Assembly: GCA_021798915.1 (NCBI GenBank)
Contig: JAJZBM010000004.1
Coordinates: 124,001-188,000 of the forward strand
DNA: 64,000 nucleotides
Direction of reading: 5' to 3'
DNA from: Pseudomonadota bacterium
GTDB lineage: Bacteria; Pseudomonadota; Alphaproteobacteria; Acetobacterales; Acetobacteraceae
In this document: piece by piece, positions 667-28,145 of the stretch
Layout of the letters: each line of letters begins with the position of its first letter
Position numbering within the stretch: the stretch's first letter is position 1
Position numbers and translations under genes: made by a program
The notes under the pieces: model-generated
The model's database searches: none
Seen by the model: the letters and a program-made list of their open reading frames with translations, nothing else
What the model was told of the DNA's origin: nothing

Positions 667-1577
667 CGCCGCTCCCGGTCATCATCGATTGCGATCCCGG
701 CACCGATGACGCGATCGCCCTTCTCCTCGCGCTCGCTTCGCCGGAGATCGCGCTCCAGGCGATCACCGTGGTCGGCGGCAATGTCGGGCTGGAGCATACC
801 CTGGCCAATGCCCTGGCGCTGGTCGAACTCGCCGGGGCCAGGGTTCCGGTCCATGCCGGCGCGGCGCGGCCGATCCGTGGTGAATTCACCTCGGCGCCCC
901 GGGCTCATGGCGAAAACGGTCTTGCCGGTGTGACCTTGCCTCCGGGCGGGGGGGCGGCGCCGGGGCTCGCCGCCGAAATCATCCGTGCCCATCTCCGCGC
1001 CGCGCCCGCCCCGCTTACCCTGGTCGGCATCGGCCCGGCGACCAATCTCGCCCTCGCCTTGCTGGCCGAGCCCGATCTCGCAGGCAATATCGCCCAAATC
1101 GTCCTGATGAGTGGTGCGCGCGCGGGCGGCAATGTCACCGCGGCCGCCGAGTTCAACGCCTGGAGCGACCCCGAGGCGTTGGCGGTGCTGCTCGCCGCCG
1201 GCTGCCCGCTCACGCTCGCGCCGCTCGACCTCACCCATCAGGCGCTGGTGACGCCTTCGCGTCTCGCGCGCCTCCGCGCCGCCGGGACGGGAGCGGCGCT
1301 TGCCACCGCCTGCGCCATTCTCGCAGCCCAACCGCCGCATCCGACCCTCCCAGGCCCTCCGCTGCATGACCCCTGCGCCCTCGCCTGGCTGATCCGCCCC
1401 GCCCTCTTCACCGCGCGCCCGGCCTTCGTCGCCGTCTCCTGCGCCGAAGGGGCGATGCGGGGACAGACGACGATCGCGCCCGCCCCGGAAGAGACCGCCA
1501 ATGCCCTGGTGCTTGAGACGCTTGACGCCGACGGCTTCTTCGCGCTGCTCGGCGAGCGGCTTTCGCGCCTGCCGTGA
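663..1577 (+). CDS. Inosine/uridine-preferring nucleoside hydrolase (IunH family)
   Basis: A 304-residue enzyme predicted to hydrolyse the N-glycosidic bond of ribonucleosides for purine/pyrimidine salvage. The calcium-binding aspartate cluster 'DCDPGTDDA' is at residues 9-17, 'EFNAWSDPEA' follows mid-protein, and a further ligand aspartate lies in 'LHDPCALAWL' near the C-terminus. All are diagnostic for the family and the length is normal. The GTG start at 663 is chosen because it overlaps the upstream stop in a GTGA arrangement and has a GGAGAG ribosome site five bases before it; an upstream TTG has no such support. No transporter is adjacent. Substrate preference (inosine, uridine, other) cannot be read from the sequence. 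Confidence 0.93.
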   Translation: MTPLPVIIDCDPGTDDAIALLLALASPEIALQAITVVGGNVGLEHTLANALALVELAGARVPVHAGAARPIRGEFTSAPRAHGENGLAGVTLPPGGGAAPGLAAEIIRAHLRAAPAPLTLVGIGPATNLALALLAEPDLAGNIAQIVLMSGARAGGNVTAAAEFNAWSDPEALAVLLAAGCPLTLAPLDLTHQALVTPSRLARLRAAGTGAALATACAILAAQPPHPTLPGPPLHDPCALAWLIRPALFTARPAFVAVSCAEGAMRGQTTIAPAPEETANALVLETLDADGFFALLGERLSRLP

Positions 1578-1795
1578 CCTTCCGCCTACAGGGACAAGCC
1601 GCCCTCGCCCGAATTGGCTTGGCGGGTGCGCGTGGTTAGCCTGTCTGCCAGGGATTCGTGGCGCTCGCGGCGCTCAGCCGTATCATTCTCGGCTTTCGCC
1701 ACCCCGCCTGCCGGTATATGACCGCGCTTACGCCGGGGACGCGCTCGCCGATGATTTCGGCTGAACAACCGGTTCGCCTGGAAATTGGGCCGAGA

Positions 1796-3619
1796 TTACG
1801 CGGGCGCGATCGCGGTGGTGATATCATTCCCGCCATCGACCAACCGCTCCCAGAATAGCGCCGCGCCTTCCTCGCCCGCGGCCGTGCGCGGGATGAATCC
1901 GAGGCGCGGATAGAGATCGGCGACGACGCCGTTTTTCGCGGTCGGGCGATATTCGCCGACCAGACGCACAAAGCCGCGCGCCCCGGCCAGCGTCAGCAGA
2001 TGGCGAAGGATGAACGCCTCGGCGGTGCGGGAAAAGACGCGGCAGCTCATCAGCCAGCTCACGATATGGAGCGTCTCCCCATCCGCCTCCGGCCGCGCGA
2101 TCAGCGTCGAGACCAGGCCGTGATCGCCGAATTTGTCGCGCAGGTGAAACGCCAGCACGATGGCGTCGTCATCGGCGAGGAAGGCGCGGATTTCAGCCTC
2201 GGAGAAGCGCCGCGTGGTGAGGTTGAACTGGTTGGTTTTCTGTTCGAGTTGGGCGACACGGGCGATATCGCCCTCCTCCGGACGCCAGATCCGCCCACGC
2301 ATCGCGAGCCCGTCGAGATAGCTCCCGAGATCGGTCGCCCCACGCGCCTCCGCCGCCGCCGCCTCGCGCGCGGCATAGGCATCGGCGCGGGCGAGATCCT
2401 CGGCGGTGTAGCTGTCGAGATAGAGCCAGCGCGTCGCATCCAGACGCTCGATGAAGCGGCCGGGATCGTCGCCGAGCGGCACGACCGCGACCTCGGGCAG
2501 GGCGCCGGCGACGAGATCGCATTCGGCGGGGTTGTCGTCGAGGAAGATCAGGGAATCGAGGCCGAGATTGAGCGCCTGTGCGACCCGCTTGATACCGTCC
2601 GCCTTGTTCTCCCACGAGCATTCGAAGGCGGCGAAATCCTCACGCACGAGGCGGGTCGCGGGATGGGTGAAGCCGGTTGCGGCGATCTCCGGGTCGTTCT
2701 TGCTGCACACCGCGAGCACGATGCCGCGGGCGCGCAAGCCCCGGAGATAGTCCTGCCAGTCGGCGAAGGCCTCACCGGCTGGTGAGCCCGGGCCGAGGAC
2801 AATCCCGCCGACGCCGTCATCACCGATGACGCCGCCCCAGAGCGTGTTGTCGAGATCGAGCATCAGCGCCTTCTTCGCCCGGCCGAACGCCGCCCGGAAG
2901 GCGGCGCGGAAATAGGCGACGTAATCGGGCAAATGGCGCTGATCGAAGCCGGTGCGGGCGGCATAGTAATTGCCCGGGCTCGCAAAGCGCACGAACCCGG
3001 CTTCCGCCGCCAGACGGTCGGTCTCGATCCAGGAAACGCGGCCGCGCCCGCACGCCAGCAGCGCCGCGTTGAGGGCGGCGACCTGACGTTCCGGCGCCGC
3101 GTCGGCGAAACGCTCGGCGGGGCCGCAAAACCGCATCGGCGGCGGCACCATCAGATGCTGGAGGATGCGGCAGCGCCCATCGCCAGCCAGCGCCTGCCAC
3201 AGGTTTTCGAACAACGCTACCTTGGCGGCGCGCGAAGCGGCCACGGTTTCGTGATCAGCGCCGATCGGCAGCGGATCGACGCCGTCGCGCCAATCGGTCG
3301 CGAGCAGAACGCAATCCGGGGCGAAGCGGTGCAGCGCCGAGCCGGGATCGAGCGCTTCCGGGATCAGGGCGCCGAACGGGGCCTGATAGATCACCGGCCA
3401 TACCCCTTCGAGGGCGAGCGCGCAGGCGGTGGCACGGACGATGAAATCGGTGGTCAGGCTGCCGAGGATGGCAAGGCGCAGGACGGCGACCCCGGGCGGC
3501 GGCGCGGCCGCCAAAATCTCGCCGCCGGCCGAGAAAATCAGCGGGAGCGTCAGCGCCTTGGCGCCAAGCCGGGCACGAAGCGCCGGAAAATCGACGCCAG
3601 TCACGGTCTCGTCTCTCAT
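1796..3619 (-). CDS. FkbH-like HAD-IIIC / GNAT-type protein (glyceryl-ACP synthase-like)
   Basis: A 607-residue protein with the full FkbH-like plan: an SGNH-like N-terminal region, a HAD-IIIC phosphatase domain around residue 255 with 'LDLDNTLWGGVIGDDG' (the DxDxT nucleophile motif) and 'FLDDNPAE', then a GNAT-like C-terminal domain with 'EQKTNQFNLTTRR'. Characterised FkbH enzymes take 1,3-bisphosphoglycerate, dephosphorylate it and load a glyceryl group on an acyl carrier protein. The ATG at 3619 is preferred to upstream starts because it is preceded by GGAG and lies just after the carrier-protein gene. No polyketide or peptide synthetase is in the neighbourhood, so the destination of the glyceryl group is unknown. 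Confidence 0.88.
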   Translation of the reverse strand: MRDETVTGVDFPALRARLGAKALTLPLIFSAGGEILAAAPPPGVAVLRLAILGSLTTDFIVRATACALALEGVWPVIYQAPFGALIPEALDPGSALHRFAPDCVLLATDWRDGVDPLPIGADHETVAASRAAKVALFENLWQALAGDGRCRILQHLMVPPPMRFCGPAERFADAAPERQVAALNAALLACGRGRVSWIETDRLAAEAGFVRFASPGNYYAARTGFDQRHLPDYVAYFRAAFRAAFGRAKKALMLDLDNTLWGGVIGDDGVGGIVLGPGSPAGEAFADWQDYLRGLRARGIVLAVCSKNDPEIAATGFTHPATRLVREDFAAFECSWENKADGIKRVAQALNLGLDSLIFLDDNPAECDLVAGALPEVAVVPLGDDPGRFIERLDATRWLYLDSYTAEDLARADAYAAREAAAAEARGATDLGSYLDGLAMRGRIWRPEEGDIARVAQLEQKTNQFNLTTRRFSEAEIRAFLADDDAIVLAFHLRDKFGDHGLVSTLIARPEADGETLHIVSWLMSCRVFSRTAEAFILRHLLTLAGARGFVRLVGEYRPTAKNGVVADLYPRLGFIPRTAAGEEGAALFWERLVDGGNDITTAIAPA

Positions 3620-3647
3620 GTCAGGGCTCCGCCGGTGGGAGAGAAGA

Positions 3648-3887
3648 TCAGAGCGAAACCTCGACCCCGTGGCGCGCCAGCGCGGCGGCGATCTTGGCGA
3701 CGCTATTGGCCTCGCTGATTTCCTGGGCGCTGAATTCGATGCCGAAACCGCTCTCGATTTCACCCATCAGCACCACTTGGCGAAGACTGTCCCAGTTCTT
3801 GGTATTTTCGGCACTCGATTGGGCGTTCAGGCTGGCACGGTCGAGACTCAGCGTCTCGGCGATCAGGCCCAGCAAATCTCCGCTCAT
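3648..3887 (-). CDS. Acyl carrier protein, partner of the FkbH-like protein
   Basis: A 79-residue carrier protein. Ser34 in 'NWDSLRQVVL' is the expected phosphopantetheine attachment site (DSL motif), and it is followed by the usual acidic helix 'EIESGFGIEF'. The ATG at 3887 gives a standard ACP length; a longer open frame upstream has no ribosome site and reads basic, non-ACP-like sequence. It is 28 bases upstream of the FkbH-like gene on the same strand, so the two form a two-gene unit. In known systems this ACP type carries glyceryl or related C3 units. It is not the housekeeping AcpP, whose DSLD context and gene order differ. Confidence 0.88.
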   Translation of the reverse strand: MSGDLLGLIAETLSLDRASLNAQSSAENTKNWDSLRQVVLMGEIESGFGIEFSAQEISEANSVAKIAAALARHGVEVSL

Positions 3888-3957
3888 GAACCGGTTCCTT
3901 CGTGGCGCTCGATGGAGACGAAATCTAGTGTGAAACCCGGCCCCATCGCAATCTCTT

Positions 3958-3973
3958 TTAACGCTTCCGTTAA
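3958..3973 (-). promoter_or_regulatory. TTAACG-N4-CGTTAA inverted repeat upstream of the ACP gene
   Basis: A perfect six-base inverted repeat with a four-base spacer lies about 70 bases upstream of the ACP start. Read on the minus strand the first half (TTAACG) also resembles a -35 box, with a poor -10 (TGCGAT) 17 bases on. It could be an operator for the ACP/FkbH unit. This is a pattern call only; no known regulator site is matched. Confidence 0.3.
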
Positions 3974-4025
3974 TGCGCCCGAGCAATGCCCGGGGCGGCG
4001 GCGCTGGTTCAGGACAATCAGGTGA

Positions 4026-4060
4026 AGGGAAAGAAGACCAGGGCGCTGCCCCTGGCCCCC
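4026..4060 (-). repeat. GC-rich palindromic repeat, family 2, copy 1
   Basis: Read on the minus strand this begins GGGGGCCAGGGGCAGCGCCC and ends in a pyrimidine tract ending TTTCCCTTCA. A hairpin with stem CCAGGG/CCCTGG forms at 4038-4055. A clearly related sequence lies at 40477-40514 on the plus strand. Both are intergenic and look like dispersed palindromic repeats; this one could also act as a terminator-like hairpin between the tRNA and the ACP gene. Confidence 0.5.
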
Positions 4061-4106
4061 GTTAAGAGGCTAATCCGGGATCGACCTCGCAGAAAATCTC
4101 GAGGCA

Positions 4107-4199
4107 TGGCGGAGGGAGGGGGATTCGAACCCCCGGTACGGGTTTACCCCGTACAACGGTTTAGCAAACCGCCGCCTTCAGCCGCTCGGCCACCCCTCC
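4107..4199 (-). tRNA. tRNA-Ser (anticodon GCT)
   Basis: On the minus strand the gene folds as a class II tRNA: acceptor stem GGAGGGG at 4193-4199 pairing with the segment at 4111-4117, anticodon GCT at 4163-4165 in the loop TTTGCTAAA, a long variable arm (GTACGGG/CCCGTAC), the T-loop GGTTCGAATCC, discriminator G and an encoded CCA at 4107-4109. The long variable arm and the GCT anticodon identify serine, reading AGC/AGU codons. It stands alone between the ACP and mlaF genes. tRNA-Ser genes can be integration sites, but no integrase or att repeat is visible nearby. Confidence 0.97.
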
Positions 4200-4282
4200 G
4201 CGGGCGGGAAACGCTCGCGCCGTCATCTCCTAGGTCAGCGCCTCGGCGAGGTCAATCGCCTTGTCGTCGCGGCCTCGTCTCC

Positions 4283-5059
4283 CTACCGCCGCACTTCCAT
4301 CTGGATCGGCCCTTCGCGGCGGCCATGGGTGAATTGATCGACCAGCGGATTGCCGCTCGCCATCAAATCCGCCGCCCTCCCCTGCCAGACGATGCGCCCG
4401 CCATGCAGCATCGCCGCGCGGTCGCCGATCCGCCGCGCGCTCGCCATGTCGTGGGTGATGGCGATCGCGGTGCTGCCGAGGCGTTTCACGCAGTCGACGA
4501 TCAACCCATCGATCACCGCGCCCATGATCGGGTCGAGCCCGGTGGTCGGCTCGTCGAAGAACAGGATCTCGGGCCGGGCCGCGATGGCGCGCGCGAGGCC
4601 GACGCGTTTTTGCATCCCACCCGAGAGTTCGGCCGGAAACAGCGGCGCGACATCGGCGCCGAGCCCGACCTGGGCCAGGATCTCGATCGCCGTCTCGCGC
4701 GCCGCGCGGCGGGTGATCTGGTGGCGCGCCAGGAGACCGAAAGCGACATTCTCCCAGACCGGCAGGCTATCGAACAGCGCCGCGTTCTGAAACAACATGC
4801 CAACCCGCGCCCGCACCGCCGCCAGCGCCTTGCCCGAGAGCCCGCCGAGGGCAACGCCACCGATCTCGATGGTTCCGGCATCGGGGGTGATCAGGCCGAG
4901 AATGCACTTGATCAGCACCGATTTCCCCGAGCCCGACCCGCCGATGACGACCAACGAGGTGCCGGCGGCGATGTCGAGGTCGATCCCGGCCAGAACCTGC
5001 TTGTCGCCGAACGCCTTGGTGAGGCCGCGCAGCCTGATCATCGGAACGGCGGCGCTCAT
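4283..5059 (-). CDS. mlaF: ABC transporter ATPase, MlaF/Ttg2A type
   Basis: A 258-residue ATPase with Walker A 'GGSGSGKS' at residues 40-47, an ABC signature in the MlaF-like form 'LSGGMQKRVGLARAIAARP' and Walker B 'ILFFDEPTTGLDP'. In the Mla system it powers MlaE to move phospholipids between inner and outer membrane, maintaining lipid asymmetry. Its ATG overlaps the stop of mlaE by four bases, so the two are translated together. The substrate-binding MlaD (MCE protein) and MlaC/MlaB are not adjacent here; in many alphaproteobacteria they lie elsewhere. Confidence 0.92.
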   Translation of the reverse strand: MSAAVPMIRLRGLTKAFGDKQVLAGIDLDIAAGTSLVVIGGSGSGKSVLIKCILGLITPDAGTIEIGGVALGGLSGKALAAVRARVGMLFQNAALFDSLPVWENVAFGLLARHQITRRAARETAIEILAQVGLGADVAPLFPAELSGGMQKRVGLARAIAARPEILFFDEPTTGLDPIMGAVIDGLIVDCVKRLGSTAIAITHDMASARRIGDRAAMLHGGRIVWQGRAADLMASGNPLVDQFTHGRREGPIQMEVRR

Positions 5060-7111: not shown

Positions 7112-8605
7112 TCAATGAATATCATCACCGTGATGATCCGGATCGAGATCGGCAAATCGGGTGAACTCGGCCTCGAAGAAGAGGTCGATCTTGCCGGTCG
7201 GGCCGTGGCGCTGTTTCGCGATGAACAACTCGGCTTTGTTATAGACCTGATCCATGTCGCGTTGCCATTTGGCGAGCGCGTCCTGGTATTTTTCCTCCGA
7301 CTCGAACGCGAGCTGCTTGGGCGCGCGCTGCTGGAGATAGTATTCATCGCGATAGATGAACATCACCGCGTCCGCATCCTGCTCGATGGTGCCGGATTCG
7401 CGCAGATCGGAAAGTTGCGGGCGCTTGTCGTCGCGGCTTTCGACGGCGCGCGAGAGCTGGGAGAGGGCCATCACCGGGACCGCCAATTCCTTGGCGATCG
7501 CCTTCAGCCCCTGGGTGATCTGGCTGATTTCGAGCACCCGGTTTTCCGGCCGCGTGCCGGCGGCGGGGCGCATGAGCTGGAGATAATCGACCACCACCAA
7601 AGCGAGGCCGCTGGTGCGCTTGAGCCGGCGGCAGCGGGTGCGGAGCGCAGAGAGCGTGATCGCCGGTGTGTCGTCGATCTCCAGCGGCAAGCCGGTCAGG
7701 GTGCGGCTGACCTCGACGAAGCGGTCGAAATCACGCTGGGCGATATCGCCGCGGCGGATGCGGTCGCTGCTGATGCGGGCGTTTTCGGCGAGAATGCGGG
7801 CGGCGAGCTGTTCGGCGCTCATCTCGAGCGAGAAAATCGCCACCGCCGCCCGCGGGGCCGCACCGGCGGCGGCCTCGGCGCGGAGTGCGAGAGCCGCGCC
7901 AAAGGCGATCTTGGTCGCCAGCGCGGTTTTCCCCATGCCCGGCCGGCCGGCGAGGATCAGGAGATCGGCGGGATGGAGGCCGCCCAGGCGCTGGTCAAGA
8001 TCGCGGAGCCCGGTCGAAAGGCCGGAGACATGGCCACTCCGCCGGAACGCCCGCTCGGCGCCGGTGATCGCCTCGGTCAGCGCGCGATCGAAGGTGATGA
8101 AGCCGCCCTCGGCCGAGCCGCGCGTCGCGAGGTCGAACAACGCCTGCTCGGCGGCCTCGATCTGCGCCCGGCCGTCGATCGCCTCCTCGTCGCCGAACGC
8201 GCGGTTGACCACCACCTCGCCGAGATCGACGAGCTGGCGGCGGATCCAGGAATCGTGGATGGCGCGGCCATAATCGCCGGCGTTGATGATGCCGACCATG
8301 GCGCCGAGCAACTGGGCGAGATAGGCGGTGCCGCCAACCTCGGCGAGGATGCCGGAATGCTCGAACTCCGCTTTCAGTGTCACCGCGTCGGCGAGCTGCC
8401 CGGCTTCGACGCGGCGCGCGATCGCTTGATAGATCCGGCCATGGATCGGGTCGGCGAAATGCTCGGGCGCCAGGAATTCCGACACCCGCTCATAGGCCTT
8501 GTTATTGGCGAGAAGCGCGCCGAGAAGGGCCTGCTCGGCCTCGAGATTGGCGGGCGGTAGGCGCAGCGTGGCACCACCGGGCGGCGCGGGGTCGAACTTG
8601 TTCAT
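7112..8605 (-). CDS. dnaB: Replicative DNA helicase DnaB
   Basis: A 497-residue hexameric 5'-3' helicase for chromosome replication. The N-terminal DnaB domain opens at about residue 17 with 'PPANLEAEQALLGALL', Walker A is 'GRPGMGKT' at 220-227, Walker B is 'LALVVVDYLQLM', and 'SQLSRAVESRDDKRPQLSDL' is the classic late motif. Length is normal and there is no intein interruption. It is downstream of nusB on the same strand, as is common in alphaproteobacteria. Two palindromic repeats separate it from alr. Confidence 0.97.
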   Translation of the reverse strand: MNKFDPAPPGGATLRLPPANLEAEQALLGALLANNKAYERVSEFLAPEHFADPIHGRIYQAIARRVEAGQLADAVTLKAEFEHSGILAEVGGTAYLAQLLGAMVGIINAGDYGRAIHDSWIRRQLVDLGEVVVNRAFGDEEAIDGRAQIEAAEQALFDLATRGSAEGGFITFDRALTEAITGAERAFRRSGHVSGLSTGLRDLDQRLGGLHPADLLILAGRPGMGKTALATKIAFGAALALRAEAAAGAAPRAAVAIFSLEMSAEQLAARILAENARISSDRIRRGDIAQRDFDRFVEVSRTLTGLPLEIDDTPAITLSALRTRCRRLKRTSGLALVVVDYLQLMRPAAGTRPENRVLEISQITQGLKAIAKELAVPVMALSQLSRAVESRDDKRPQLSDLRESGTIEQDADAVMFIYRDEYYLQQRAPKQLAFESEEKYQDALAKWQRDMDQVYNKAELFIAKQRHGPTGKIDLFFEAEFTRFADLDPDHHGDDIH

Positions 8606-16770: not shown

Positions 16771-17865
16771 GTGAGCACCGCGCCGACCCTCGCGATCGAT
16801 GGCATGGGCGGCGACCATGCGCCGGAGGTCATCGTCGCCGGGCTTTCCATCGCCCTCGAACGCCATCCGGAGGCGCTTTTCCTGCTGTTCGGTGACGAGG
16901 CCCGGCTCACCCCGTTGCTCGCCCGCCATCCCCGGCTCGCCCGCGCGACCACGCTCCGCCACGCCGCCGAGGTGATCCCCGGCGACCTCAAGCCGACGGC
17001 GGCGCTTCGCCTCCGCCAGGCCTCGATGCGACTCGCGATCGACGCGGTCGCCGCCGGCGAGGCGCAGGGGGTGGTCTCGGCGGGGAATACCGGGGCGCTG
17101 CTGACGCTCGCCAAAATCGTCCTCAAGACCCTCCCCGGCATCGACCGCCCGGCGATGGCCGGCATCGCGCCCTCGGCGCGCGGCGACGTGGTGATGCTCG
17201 ATCTCGGCGCCAATGTGCAGTGCGATGCCCGCAACCTGGTCGAATTCGCGGTGATGGGCGATGTCTTCGCGCGGGTGACCCTCGGCCTGCCGGCGCCGCG
17301 CATCGGCCTCCTCAATGTCGGCGCCGAGGAGATGAAGGGCGATGAGCGGCTGCGCCAAGCGGCCGAAATCCTCAAGGAAAGTCCGATCGCGGCGCGGTTC
17401 CATGGCTTCGTCGAGGGCCACGACATCGCCGCCGGCACCACCGACGTGGTGGTGACCGACGGGTTCACCGGCAATGTCGCACTCAAGACCGGGGAAGGCG
17501 CGCTGAAGCTGATCGGGCAGTTGCTGCGCCAGGTGTTCACCGCCAGCGTCTCGGCGCGGATCGGCTATCTGCTGGCGAAATCGAGTCTCGAGCGGCTGCG
17601 CGAATGGCTCGACCCCAGGCGCTATAACGGCGCGGTGATGCTCGGGCTCAACGGCGTCGTGGTGAAATCGCATGGCGGCACCGACGCGGAAGGTTTCGCT
17701 CATGCGATGGATGTCGCGATGGACATGGTCTTGCACAATTTCAACGAGCGCATCCGCGAGGGGCTGAGCGGCGTGCTCGCCGCCCAAACCGCGAAAGACG
17801 AAGCCGCGAAAGACGAGGCGGCGAAGAAGCCCGCCGCCGCCGGTCTTGCCGATGCCGGGGGCTGA
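16771..17865 (+). CDS. plsX: Phosphate acyltransferase PlsX
   Basis: A 364-residue enzyme converting acyl-ACP to acyl-phosphate for PlsY in phospholipid synthesis. Recognised from 'LAIDGMGGDHAPEVIVAG', 'GVVSAGNTGALLTLA', 'DLGANVQCDARNL' and 'VVVTDGFTGNVALKTGEG'. The start is GTG at 16771. The C-terminal tail carries a 15-base in-frame repeat (AKDEA units) absent from the conserved core. It is followed by fabH five bases after the stop, so the two initiate fatty acid and phospholipid synthesis together. Confidence 0.96.
   Translation: MSTAPTLAIDGMGGDHAPEVIVAGLSIALERHPEALFLLFGDEARLTPLLARHPRLARATTLRHAAEVIPGDLKPTAALRLRQASMRLAIDAVAAGEAQGVVSAGNTGALLTLAKIVLKTLPGIDRPAMAGIAPSARGDVVMLDLGANVQCDARNLVEFAVMGDVFARVTLGLPAPRIGLLNVGAEEMKGDERLRQAAEILKESPIAARFHGFVEGHDIAAGTTDVVVTDGFTGNVALKTGEGALKLIGQLLRQVFTASVSARIGYLLAKSSLERLREWLDPRRYNGAVMLGLNGVVVKSHGGTDAEGFAHAMDVAMDMVLHNFNERIREGLSGVLAAQTAKDEAAKDEAAKKPAAAGLADAGG
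17791..17829 (+). repeat. 15-bp tandem repeat in the plsX 3' end
   Basis: Units GCGAAAGACGAAGCC (17791), GCGAAAGACGAGGCG (17806) and a degenerate third (17821) encode AKDEA-AKDEA-AKK. It lies outside the conserved PlsX fold. Confidence 0.8.
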
Positions 17866-17869
17866 TCGG

Positions 17870-18844
17870 ATGGCGCGGCATGCCGTTCTCGCCGGCGTCG
17901 GTGGCTATCTGCCGAAGCTGATCGTCACCAACGACGATCTCGCCCGCTCGCTCGACACTTCGGATGAGTGGATCCGCGAGCGCACCGGTATCCGCCAGCG
18001 CCACATCGCCGGCGCCGACGAAACCGCGGCGATGATGGCAACCGAGGCGGCGCGGGCGGCGCTGCGCCGGGCTGGCGCCGGGCCGGACGAGGTCGATGCC
18101 ATCATCCTGGCCACCAGCACCCCGGATCAGGCGTTTCCGGCGACCGCGACGCGCGTCCAGGCGGCGCTCGGCGTTGCACGCGGCTTCGCCTTCGACCTCT
18201 CCGCCGCCTGCTCGGGTTTCATCTATGCCCTCGCCGTCGCCGACGGGATGATCCGCGCTGGCCAAGCCTCGGGCGTCCTGGTGATCGGCGCCGAGGTCTA
18301 TTCGCGCATTCTCGACTGGCAGGACCGCACCACCTGCGTCCTGTTCGGCGACGGCGCCGGGGCGGTGTTCCTGCACGCCGCCGAAGGCCCCGCGACGCCC
18401 GATGCCCCCGGCGTGGTCTCGACCCATCTCCACGCCGATGGCCGCCACGGTGACATCCTCTATATCGATGGCGCGGTCGGCCAGCGCGAGCGGCCGGGGA
18501 CGCTCGCGATGAACGGCGCGGCGGTGTTCCGCCATGCCGTCGTCAACCTCGCTGCCGCGGTCGAGGAGGCGCTGGCCGCTAACCGGCTCGATCGCTCGGC
18601 CGTCGATTGGCTGGTGCCGCATCAAGCCAACCGGCGGATCATCGACGCCATGGGCAAGAAGCTCGGCCTCGCCCCGGAGCGGGTGGTGGTGACGATCGAC
18701 CGCCACGCCAATACCTCCGCCGCTTCGATCCCGCTCGCGCTCGCCGAGGCGGTGGGCGATGGCCGTATCCGCCCCGGCCATCTCGTGCTCATGGAGGCGC
18801 TCGGCGGCGGCCTCACCTGGGGCTCGGCGCTGGTCAGGATGTAG
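17870..18844 (+). CDS. fabH: 3-oxoacyl-ACP synthase III
   Basis: A 324-residue ketoacyl-ACP synthase that starts fatty acid chains from acetyl-CoA and malonyl-ACP. The catalytic triad is complete: Cys115 in 'LSAACSGF', His251 in 'LVPHQANRRI' and Asn281 in 'RHANTSAASIP'. The C-terminus 'GGGLTWGSALVRM' is typical. The ATG at 17870 follows the plsX stop by four bases; an upstream TTG within plsX is rejected. Confidence 0.96.
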   Translation: MARHAVLAGVGGYLPKLIVTNDDLARSLDTSDEWIRERTGIRQRHIAGADETAAMMATEAARAALRRAGAGPDEVDAIILATSTPDQAFPATATRVQAALGVARGFAFDLSAACSGFIYALAVADGMIRAGQASGVLVIGAEVYSRILDWQDRTTCVLFGDGAGAVFLHAAEGPATPDAPGVVSTHLHADGRHGDILYIDGAVGQRERPGTLAMNGAAVFRHAVVNLAAAVEEALAANRLDRSAVDWLVPHQANRRIIDAMGKKLGLAPERVVVTIDRHANTSAASIPLALAEAVGDGRIRPGHLVLMEALGGGLTWGSALVRM

Positions 18845-26807: not shown

Positions 26808-26870
26808 GCTTCTTTTTCTGAAGAAAAAGAAGCAAAAAGACTTTTAGCCGTCGGGCAGCGCCTGCGGCGC
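26808..26870 (-). repeat. AT-rich palindromic repeat, family 1, copy C
   Basis: Read on the minus strand a GC-rich arm (GCGCCGCAGGCGCTGCCC) leads to CTAAAAGTCTTTTTG and a perfect 11-base stem GCTTCTTTTTC/GAAAAAGAAGC with loop TTCA (26808-26833). It lies at the meeting point of two convergent genes. Its GC-rich arm encodes the last codons and the TAA stop of the acyltransferase. Confidence 0.8.
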
Positions 26871-28025
26871 TACCCGGACGGGGCGCGTGCTCCAGCGCCG
26901 TGAGAGCGCGATGGCGTTCTGATCAACGGCGCGCTCGAACAGGACGGCGAGGGGTAATGTCGCTGCAAGGCCAACGATGAGCGCGAAACCCGCCGCCGCC
27001 CCGACACCGATCCGCCCCACGGCCACGACGAAGACGGCGCTGCCGAGTGTCGTCAGGATGGGAAAATGCAATAGATAAATCGCGAAAGACAATTTCCCGA
27101 GCCACTGCGCGAGCCGGCTTCGGAGAAGGAAATGCGCCTCCGGGAGAAGCAGAACCGCGACAAAAATCGCAACCGCGGCGCCTTCCTGGCTGAGGGAAAA
27201 CCAGGCGAAGGGGCGAACCAGTGCGCGGGCCACATCAGCGCGCTGGAGCCAGCGCGCCGCCGGCATGAACCAATCATATTCCGTCAGAATACCGAGAAGA
27301 AAAACGGCAATGCCCAACGCCGGCCGCCAGCGGCGAGCCATCAGGGTGGAAAACCATTGGCTGCGGGCAGCCAGCGAGAGCACGCTGCCGAGGGCAAAGA
27401 GATCGAGCGCGTTCACCCCGATCATCCCGGCGCAGAACGCCAGCGCAACGGCATGCAGCCAAGGATTACAGGCGCGAAGCCAGACCAGCAGAAGAACCAG
27501 GAAAGAGCCCCAGAGTTCCAGATGCAGGCTCCAGACGGGCGCATCGACCGATGCCGTCCAAGGAGGCAGAATCCCGACCAGCGGTCCGAACAACGTCGTT
27601 TCCGCGTATCCGGTGATCAGGGACAGGCCCGACAGGTCGGCAAACGCCTGCCCCAAGGCCACCGGTCGCAGCCCGGCGAGCCAGGACGATCCAGACAGCG
27701 CCGCCGCGACCGGCGCAGCATGGGGCCATGCGGCCTGGAGCAAAGCGGCGAAAACGCAGGCGGCCGCGGCGGGAAGACCGAGGCGGATGACACGGCGGCC
27801 GAGACCCGACACCAGCGCATGCGGGCGGCGCTCGAAGCTCGGTGTCAGCACGAACCCCGACATCACGAAAAAGACGAATACCGCGAAATTGCCGTCCGCC
27901 AGAATTCCGAAATGTCCCGACGAGACGGGTAGAAAAGCCAAGGCATAGTGCTGAAAGACGACCTGCATCGCCGCCAGCCCTCTCAGCCCATCAAGGTATG
28001 TCTCTCTGGCTTTTGACGTCTTCAT
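26844..28025 (-). CDS. Acyltransferase 3 family membrane protein (OafA-like)
   Basis: A 393-residue protein with about ten membrane segments. It starts 'YLDGLRGLAAMQVVFQHYAL', where the arginine and histidine are the family's catalytic-type residues, and contains 'FVFFVMSGFVLTPSF'. Family members acetylate or otherwise acylate sugars of O-antigen, capsule or exopolysaccharide in the inner membrane. ATG 28025 is chosen over an upstream basic, Arg-rich extension. The last residues and stop come from repeat copy C. It lies downstream of the RTX-like gene but is separated from it by a strong hairpin. Confidence 0.9.
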   Translation of the reverse strand: MKTSKARETYLDGLRGLAAMQVVFQHYALAFLPVSSGHFGILADGNFAVFVFFVMSGFVLTPSFERRPHALVSGLGRRVIRLGLPAAAACVFAALLQAAWPHAAPVAAALSGSSWLAGLRPVALGQAFADLSGLSLITGYAETTLFGPLVGILPPWTASVDAPVWSLHLELWGSFLVLLLVWLRACNPWLHAVALAFCAGMIGVNALDLFALGSVLSLAARSQWFSTLMARRWRPALGIAVFLLGILTEYDWFMPAARWLQRADVARALVRPFAWFSLSQEGAAVAIFVAVLLLPEAHFLLRSRLAQWLGKLSFAIYLLHFPILTTLGSAVFVVAVGRIGVGAAAGFALIVGLAATLPLAVLFERAVDQNAIALSRRWSTRPVRVAPQALPDG

Positions 28026-28075
28026 CGTTATCCGCGGCGGGCGGAGCGGGTGATGCCGCGCCGGCGCTTGCGTCC

Positions 28076-28097
28076 GTTTGCCCCGGAAACGGCAAAC
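28076..28097 (-). repeat. Hairpin downstream of the RTX-like gene
   Basis: GTTTGCC (28076-28082) pairs with GGCAAAC (28091-28097) across an eight-base loop. It abuts the stronger terminator hairpin at 28096-28121 and could be an alternative fold. Confidence 0.35.
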
Positions 28098-28121
28098 CCG
28101 CCGCGTTGTCACGCGGCGGGT
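28096..28121 (-). terminator. Probable intrinsic terminator of the RTX-like gene
   Basis: On the minus strand a perfect ten-base stem ACCCGCCGCG/CGCGGCGGGT with loop TGACAA is followed by a short TTTGCC run, 25 bases after the RTX-like gene's stop. The U-tract is weak, so termination may be partial. Confidence 0.6.
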
Positions 28122-28145
28122 CCGCAAGACAGTGGATAATGGAAA

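What the first reader, a model, noticed from the sequence alone, without database searches (positions are those of the whole stretch)
1796..3887. Stand-alone FkbH-like protein with dedicated acyl carrier protein
The pair has what is needed to make glyceryl-ACP from a glycolytic intermediate, but no polyketide, peptide synthetase or ketosynthase gene is in the window. Free-standing pairs may feed glyceryl or related C3 groups to a polysaccharide, lipid or unknown small molecule. A perfect TTAACG-N4-CGTTAA palindrome lies in the upstream control region.
Basis: partly seen in the sequence, partly recalled or inferred. Interest (0 to 1): 0.55.

Follow-up and report, generated by a model that had tools for sequence, protein, structure and literature searches.

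The report
Three-carbon acyl loader for glycan decoration
The two genes probably load a three-carbon acid made from a glycolysis intermediate onto a small carrier protein, and in related bacteria such pairs sit beside acyltransferases that modify surface sugars, which suggests a carrier-protein donor for the poorly understood WcbI enzymes.

Summary
The pair is real: FkbH 1796-3619(-), 607 aa; ACP 3648-3887(-), 79 aa. FkbH scores 256.7 bits (cut-off 146.65) and keeps the HAD catalytic residues and Cys526. The palindrome (3958-3973) is the only exact copy in the genome. One claim is wrong: a ketosynthase, probably housekeeping fabH, is in the window (17846-18844). No PKS-sized ketosynthase was found in the genome.

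Survey: FkbH-ACP pairs of Alphaproteobacteria often sit beside acyltransferases, commonly MBOAT (26 of 84 tree rows). The window's own FkbH clade (100% support) differs: 5 of its 7 members outside the genus have WcbI-family genes within 8 kb, some as overlapping FkbH-ACP-WcbI operons; none shows an MBOAT in the stretch fetched. The genus has no MBOAT (0 of 6 genomes). FkbH, ACP and WcbI occur together in 4 of 6; a 99%-complete relative lacks all three. The genome's only WcbI is the N-terminus of a 1353-aa WcbI-TPR-methyltransferase-GT90 protein on another contig.

Best reading: FkbH makes (glyceryl-)ACP, and a WcbI-type domain transfers the acyl group to a surface glycan. Loading is well supported by homology; the acyl identity and the WcbI step are inferred.

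The parts
1796..3619 (-). FkbH-like protein, 607 aa: N-terminal region, HAD-IIIC phosphatase domain, GNAT-like C-terminal domain
   Evidence: TIGR01686 256.7 bits; 3slr over residues 22-400, rmsd 15.2; GNAT folds over about 430-600
2849..2857 (-). HAD motif I: Asp255 and Asp257 (LDLDNTLWGG)
   Evidence: both conserved in 88 of 88 rows (4 rows duplicate others; L005, L048 and L057 were not in the set)
2534..2539 (-). HAD motif IV: Asp361-Asp362
   Evidence: 88 of 88 rows
2042..2044 (-). Cys526 in the SCR motif of the GNAT-like domain, candidate acyl-transfer cysteine (role inferred)
   Evidence: 87 of 88 rows; the exception is L074
3648..3887 (-). dedicated acyl carrier protein, 79 aa
   Evidence: PF00550 27.2 bits; 0 nonsynonymous changes against G185
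3786..3788 (-). Ser34, expected phosphopantetheine attachment site (WDSL)
   Evidence: sequence; PF00550 match
3958..3973 (.). perfect palindrome TTAACG-N4-CGTTAA upstream of the ACP; possible regulator site
4033..4060 (-). terminator-like hairpin (11 pairs) between the upstream tRNA-Ser gene and the pair
   Evidence: 3 sites found in the region, 2.0 expected by chance; tRNA-Ser at 4107-4199

Best explanation
The pair is a carrier-protein acyl-donor module. FkbH takes a three-carbon glycolytic acyl phosphate (1,3-bisphosphoglycerate in known relatives), removes phosphate with its HAD domain, and passes the C3 acyl group, probably by way of Cys526, to the phosphopantetheine arm of the neighbouring ACP. 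The charged ACP then serves as donor for a WcbI-family acyl transfer onto a surface glycan. In this organism the most likely user is the N-terminal WcbI domain of the 1353-aa WcbI-TPR-methyltransferase-GT90 protein on contig C28. Shown here: intact gene pair, conserved catalytic residues, purifying selection, linkage of this FkbH clade to WcbI, and co-occurrence in the genus. Inferred: identity of the acyl group, the role of Cys526, the ACP as direct WcbI donor, and the glycan acceptor.
For: FkbH and ACP assignments; HAD residues in 88 of 88 rows and Cys526 in 87 of 88. FkbH trees (84 rows, 85 rows with G078 added): the window's clade (10 and 11 rows, 100% SH-aLRT) has WcbI within 8 kb in 5 of 7 members outside genus g1 and no MBOAT in the stretches fetched; the two without WcbI (G014, G078) also have no ACP detected there. 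Operons: G001 (L041) FkbH-ACP-WcbI'-WcbI and Caulobacter sp. S45 (L004) ACP-FkbH-WcbI'-WcbI, with overlapping gene ends; outside this clade, Niveispirillum cyanobacteriorum FkbH-ACP-WcbI-SDR. In the 31 family genomes that hold both, 9 of 36 FkbH matches have WcbI within 10.5 kb where 0.36 pairs are expected; co-occurrence 31 of 68 FkbH genomes against 21 of 132 others. Genus of 6: FkbH, ACP and WcbI in the same 4; G137 has none; MBOAT 0 of 6. A WcbI-TPR protein whose WcbI part is 41% identical to the own one lies about 7 kb from an FkbH-ACP pair in G133. The crystallised WcbI binds CoA at Cys14/His201, yet three assays showed no acetyl transfer, and the authors ask for a partner (PMC4104973, sections 13 part 1, 19 and 20 read); a carrier-protein donor would fit this.
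Against: In the window's genus the pair and the WcbI gene are not linked: different contigs in G000, G185 and G201, 1.4 Mb apart on one contig in G062. The own WcbI domain is only about 20-29% identical to the other FkbH-linked WcbIs, G133 apart. In the class sample, 6 genomes other than the own have WcbI and only 1 of these also has FkbH, so WcbI does not in general need an FkbH pair; and 37 of 68 FkbH genomes of the family sample have no PF18588 hit. G200 has WcbI but no FkbH and only a weak ACP match, though it is 86% complete. Polysaccharide genes cluster together, so closeness alone does not prove a shared reaction. PMC4104973 proposes that the missing partner presents the acceptor, not the donor.
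Confidence: 0.42

Rival explanations
1. The charged ACP feeds a membrane acyltransferase (Acyl_transf_3 protein at 26844-28127, or another one elsewhere) that decorates a lipid or polysaccharide, as MBOAT probably does in many relatives; WcbI is a bystander.
For: 16 of 36 class FkbH loci and 10 of 44 family/close loci in the tree have an MBOAT within 8 kb; an Acyl_transf_3 protein lies in the window.
Against: No MBOAT in any of 6 genomes of the genus and none in the fetched stretches of the window's clade. The Acyl_transf_3 gene is 23 kb away and its conservation was not tested. That this family uses acyl-CoA donors is recalled, not tested.
Confidence: 0.2
2. The pair supplies glyceryl-ACP (or an oxidised derivative) to a small-molecule pathway such as a tetronate or methoxymalonyl polyketide.
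For: This is the described job of FkbH-ACP pairs (PMC7489565, passages); a Streptomyces plasmid has FkbH beside KAS III, KS and ACP.
Against: The whole genome has only 4 PF00109 hits, in open frames of 413-473 aa; no tailoring genes lie directly beside the pair; fabH in the window is 14 kb away and follows plsX as in primary metabolism. NRPS domains were not searched for.
Confidence: 0.08
3. The ACP carries a different acyl group (for example lactyl or another hydroxyacyl) although the machinery is the same.
For: Sequence does not fix the substrate; one relative (G103, L039) has an AMP-ligase-ACP fusion beside WcbI, near FkbH and without a separate ACP detected, so other acids may be loaded.
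Against: The HAD residues and Cys526 are the same as in the FkbH of the Streptomyces KAS III cluster (L127).
Confidence: 0.2
4. The pair is a relic left after loss of a linked WcbI pair and no longer has a specific partner.
For: No WcbI in the fetched flanks of three genus members (about 20 kb each; the fourth, G201, has only a 3.9-kb contig). In near relatives without WcbI, G014 has FkbH without a detected ACP, and G078 has an FkbH with an internal in-frame gap of about 30 positions that removes the HAD SKN motif, also without ACP.
Against: ACP unchanged at the protein level between G000 and G185 with 13 synonymous changes; FkbH dN/dS about 0.21.
Confidence: 0.1

Closest known systems
Glyceryl-ACP forming FkbH/ACP pairs of tetronate and methoxymalonyl polyketide clusters (Mad7/Mad8, Mad14/Mad12 of PMC7489565; OzmB is recalled, no call)
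   Same: FkbH domain and a stand-alone ACP; HAD residues and SCR cysteine shared with the Streptomyces reference L127
   Different: no KAS III, dehydrogenase, methyltransferase or PKS partner directly beside it, and no PKS-sized ketosynthase in the genome
FkbH-ACP-MBOAT loci of Alphaproteobacteria (for example CP049034.1; Tistrella mobilis pTM1)
   Same: FkbH plus dedicated ACP; glycan or lipid decoration likely
   Different: no MBOAT in the window's genus; the window's FkbH clade is linked to WcbI instead
FkbH-ACP-WcbI loci (Niveispirillum cyanobacteriorum NZ_CP025615.1; G001 and Caulobacter sp. S45)
   Same: G001 and Caulobacter S45 are in the same FkbH clade; dedicated ACP; WcbI in the genome
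   Different: in the window's species WcbI is unlinked, remote in sequence, and fused to TPR, methyltransferase and GT90 domains
Dlt D-alanylation (DltA-DltC-DltB)
   Same: works alike in outline: loader enzyme, carrier protein, acyltransferase to a surface polymer (PMC9338922 and PMC11035591, abstract starts in the listing)
   Different: loader is a HAD/GNAT-like FkbH, not an AMP ligase; no MBOAT here

Membership tests
FkbH (TIGR01686) | profile score above the curated cut-off | tested here: met
   256.7 bits against 146.65
FkbH (TIGR01686) | HAD catalytic Asp pair, Lys and DD motif | tested here: met
   D255, D257, K339, D361, D362 present, each in 88 of 88 rows
FkbH (TIGR01686) | C-terminal GNAT-like domain with conserved cysteine | tested here: met
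   C526 in 87 of 88 rows; Foldseek and VIA-align GNAT matches over about 430-600
FkbH (TIGR01686) | loads glyceryl from 1,3-bisphosphoglycerate onto an ACP | not testable with these tools
   needs an assay
Tetronate or methoxymalonyl glyceryl-ACP pathway | partner KAS III / dehydrogenases / methyltransferase in the cluster | tested here: not met
   flanks hold nucleoside hydrolase, VOC and SDR genes on one side, tRNA-Ser, an ABC transporter pair, alanine racemase and dnaB on the other (SDR, ABC, alanine racemase and dnaB named by eye); fabH is 14 kb away behind plsX
FkbH-ACP-MBOAT module | MBOAT in the locus or the genome | tested here: not met
   PF03062 0 of 6 genomes of the genus
FkbH-ACP-WcbI module | WcbI gene linked to the pair | tested here: not met
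   WcbI only on contig C28
FkbH-ACP-WcbI module | FkbH belongs to the WcbI-linked clade | tested here: met
   clade of 10 rows, 11 with G078, 100% SH-aLRT; 5 of 7 members outside the genus have WcbI within 8 kb
FkbH-ACP-WcbI module | ACP is the acyl donor of WcbI | not testable with these tools
   needs biochemistry

The most novel reading that the evidence does not exclude
WcbI-family enzymes of this lineage are acyl-ACP-dependent glycan acyltransferases: the unexplained partner of WcbI is a carrier protein charged by FkbH with a C3 acid, giving a HAD-driven counterpart of the Dlt system that decorates surface glycans with glycerate.
Probability: 0.35. Interest if true: 0.75.

Novelty: new variant of a known kind. 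Interest (0 to 1): 0.45.

Why it matters
In the papers found here FkbH-ACP pairs serve polyketides and related natural products. Here a whole FkbH clade is tied to WcbI, a CoA-binding polysaccharide enzyme with a solved structure for which the paper read reports no activity. If WcbI takes its acyl group from a carrier protein, that would explain the failed acetyl-CoA assays, make the enzyme testable, and reveal a glycolysis-fed route for decorating bacterial surface glycans.

Tried and rejected
PKS in trans: rejected at the level of ketosynthases. MBOAT acceptor in this organism: rejected for the genus. A closer, operon-type WcbI elsewhere in the own genome: a profile of six WcbIs from FkbH loci finds only the C28 protein. 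A promoter next to the palindrome: the scan gives 0 promoter-like sites in 1500-4300. Rfam and tRNA scans of the window give only tRNA-Ser. The AlphaFold model of an FkbH-linked WcbI (L004) is too poor (mean pLDDT 48.1) and was not used. phmmer of three WcbI proteins against PDB: 4bqn appears once, at E 0.42; the other two gave nothing or unrelated chains, so the Cys/His correspondence rests on PF18588 and the conserved NCQ and HP motifs. The own genome's other two ACPs: one lies behind a malonyltransferase-like and an SDR gene and before a ketosynthase gene, as in a fab operon; the other lies beside an AMP-ligase-like and a hotdog-like gene (names read from sequence); neither is linked to FkbH.

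Rows dropped: the FkbH tree left out L119, L123ref, L128ref and L037 as duplicates; L005, L048 and L057 were left out because the profile hit FkbH in two pieces. On checking, L005/L048 (G078) is one open frame with an internal gap of about 30 positions that includes the SKN motif, so the 88-of-88 counts do not cover this degenerate copy; it was added to the tree. L057 (G156, second copy) really lies in two frames and stayed out. The WIN row carries the label 'none' only because its own locus L037 was dropped; it does have the ACP. The 88 rows contain four duplicates. Neighbour labels come from profiles that I built from these loci; several fetched contigs are short. Of 79 FkbH match rows I had flanks (up to about 20 kb) for about 45 places; of 42 FkbH loci other than the own, for 36.

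Full report
The observation. The window is bases 124001-188000 of contig C20 of a 3.09 Mb genome; records whose FkbH is 57-60% identical are labelled Acetobacteraceae. On the minus strand an ACP gene (3648-3887, 79 aa) precedes an FkbH gene (1796-3619, 607 aa) by 28 nt. FkbH scores 256.7 bits on TIGR01686 (cut-off 146.65), the ACP 27.2 bits on PF00550 (cut-off 20.8). The AlphaFold model of FkbH (mean pLDDT 72.7, six sequences) matches 3slr over residues 22-400 and GNAT acetyltransferases over about 430-600 (the 3slr alignment has rmsd 15.2, so the domain arrangement is unsure). In 88 aligned FkbH proteins (four are duplicates) D255, D257, K339, D361 and D362 are invariant and C526 is present in 87 (exception L074). 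The pair is under purifying selection. The palindrome at 3958-3973 is the only exact copy in the genome; its arms are kept in G185 but not in G062. The claim that no ketosynthase is in the window is wrong: fabH lies at 17846-18844 behind plsX.

What the genome holds. PF00109 gives four hits, all in open frames of 413-473 aa, one next to an ACP in what looks like a fab operon. No PKS was seen; condensation domains were not searched. PF03062 (MBOAT) gives none in six genomes of the genus. PF18588 (WcbI) gives one hit, at G000:C28:15131-15745, the start of a 1353-aa protein with WcbI, TPR, Methyltransf_24 and GT90 domains, beside two GT61 genes, another GT90 gene and a nucleotide-sugar epimerase/dehydratase gene. 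In the genus, FkbH occurs in 4 of 6 genomes, the ACP in the same 4 (G201 with a further partial copy at a contig end) plus a weak match in G200, WcbI in 5 of 6; G137, 99% complete, lacks all three.

The survey of relatives. In the family sample of 200 genomes, FkbH (E <= 1e-20) occurs in 68 and WcbI in 52; 31 have both, against 21 WcbI genomes among the 132 without FkbH (Fisher p 9e-6; by genus 28 of 102 genera with both, p 3e-6). These tests do not correct for relatedness or genome size. In the 31 genomes, 9 of 36 FkbH matches have a WcbI hit within 10.5 kb, where 0.36 pairs are expected. In a class sample of 385, FkbH occurs in 37 and WcbI in 7; both are in the own genome and in G374 only; the matching record is a Niveispirillum cyanobacteriorum plasmid with FkbH-ACP-WcbI-SDR in a row.

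The FkbH tree (84 rows) shows which partner goes with which FkbH. MBOAT neighbours label 26 rows, WcbI 7 and a domain without a Pfam hit ('ESLG') 7; 25 rows have no label. The window's clade has 100% support: 10 rows, or 11 when G078 is added. Its seven members outside the genus are L040, L004, L041, L039, L006, L003 (G014) and L005 (G078). The first five have WcbI within 8 kb. L003 has neither ACP nor WcbI detected in the fetched stretch, and L005 has neither either, with an FkbH that lacks about 30 positions including the HAD SKN motif. No MBOAT was found in the stretches of this clade. In G001 the order is FkbH-ACP-WcbI'-WcbI and in Caulobacter sp. S45 ACP-FkbH-WcbI'-WcbI, with overlapping gene ends. 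In G103 an AMP-ligase-ACP fusion lies beside WcbI, with one gene between WcbI and FkbH. In G133 a WcbI-TPR protein whose WcbI part is 41% identical to the own one lies about 7 kb from FkbH-ACP.

Interpretation. [quoted passage not shown] PMC4104973 (sections 13 part 1, 19 and 20 read) reports that WcbI binds CoA, with Cys14 and His201 at the thiol end, that three assays show no acetyl transfer, and proposes a partner that presents the acceptor. Its main text does not contain 'acyl carrier'. The linkage found here suggests that, at least in this clade, the donor is an acyl-ACP. In the window's species the only WcbI domain found is in the C28 protein, which carries glycosyltransferase and methyltransferase domains of its own; I propose it as the user of the charged ACP. 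This last step rests on co-occurrence in few genomes and is the weakest.

Against this. WcbI occurs without FkbH in 5 of 6 class genomes other than the own, and 37 of 68 FkbH genomes of the family sample have no WcbI hit. The own WcbI domain is remote from the linked ones other than that of G133 (about 20-29% identity) and unlinked to FkbH in the genus. Closeness in polysaccharide islands is not proof of a shared reaction. An Acyl_transf_3 protein in the window (26844-28127) is a rival user.

Print check (listings only unless said). FkbH + glyceryl-ACP 4 papers; FkbH + O-antigen 0; WcbI 45 papers hold the string, 20 listed, one of them on this enzyme by title; FkbH + polysaccharide + acyl carrier protein 2, neither on this topic by title; HAD-IIIC + acyl carrier protein 1, on amicoumacins; FkbH + O-acyltransferase 1, on aeruginosins; WcbI + acyl carrier protein 1, on yeast; FkbH + glyceric acid 4, natural products by title; HAD-IIIC + polysaccharide 0. 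Most papers of subscription journals and all bioRxiv preprints are missing from this library, so the link may be in print elsewhere.

Noticed in passing
L053:11255-12535; L045:6276-8925; L006:5996-6910: A domain with a conserved 'ESLG..CEFG.VQR...AEPLGLLR' stretch and no Pfam hit recurs next to FkbH-ACP pairs in Acetobacteraceae relatives, sometimes behind TPRs.
   Followed up: partly
L006:3333-4634; L004:4784-6076: A second, diverged WcbI copy (WcbI') with an N-terminal extra domain precedes the WcbI gene.
   Followed up: no
window 26844-28127: Acyl_transf_3 membrane acyltransferase, 23 kb from the pair.
   Followed up: no
window 7112-8605 and L041:3701-5218: A dnaB-like gene lies about 3-4 kb from FkbH-ACP in both the window and G001; no member of this gene group was seen in the G062 or G185 loci.
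   Followed up: no
L129:6201-8257 (G000:C51): A third ACP of the genome, beside an AMP-ligase-like gene and a hotdog-like protein.
   Followed up: no
L077:9618-11076: Two neighbouring GT61 pieces (133 and 326 aa) near the WcbI-TPR-MT-GT90 gene.
   Followed up: no
L078:15330-20000: Start of a very long repetitive adhesin-like ORF on contig C28, about 20 kb from the WcbI protein gene.
   Followed up: no
L005/L048 (G078): FkbH of a near relative is one open frame that lacks about 30 positions including the HAD SKN motif, with no ACP or WcbI detected in the fetched stretch.
   Followed up: partly
L057:9421-11330 (G156:C164): A second FkbH of G156 lies in two overlapping frames, between an ACP and two WcbI-like genes.
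   Followed up: no
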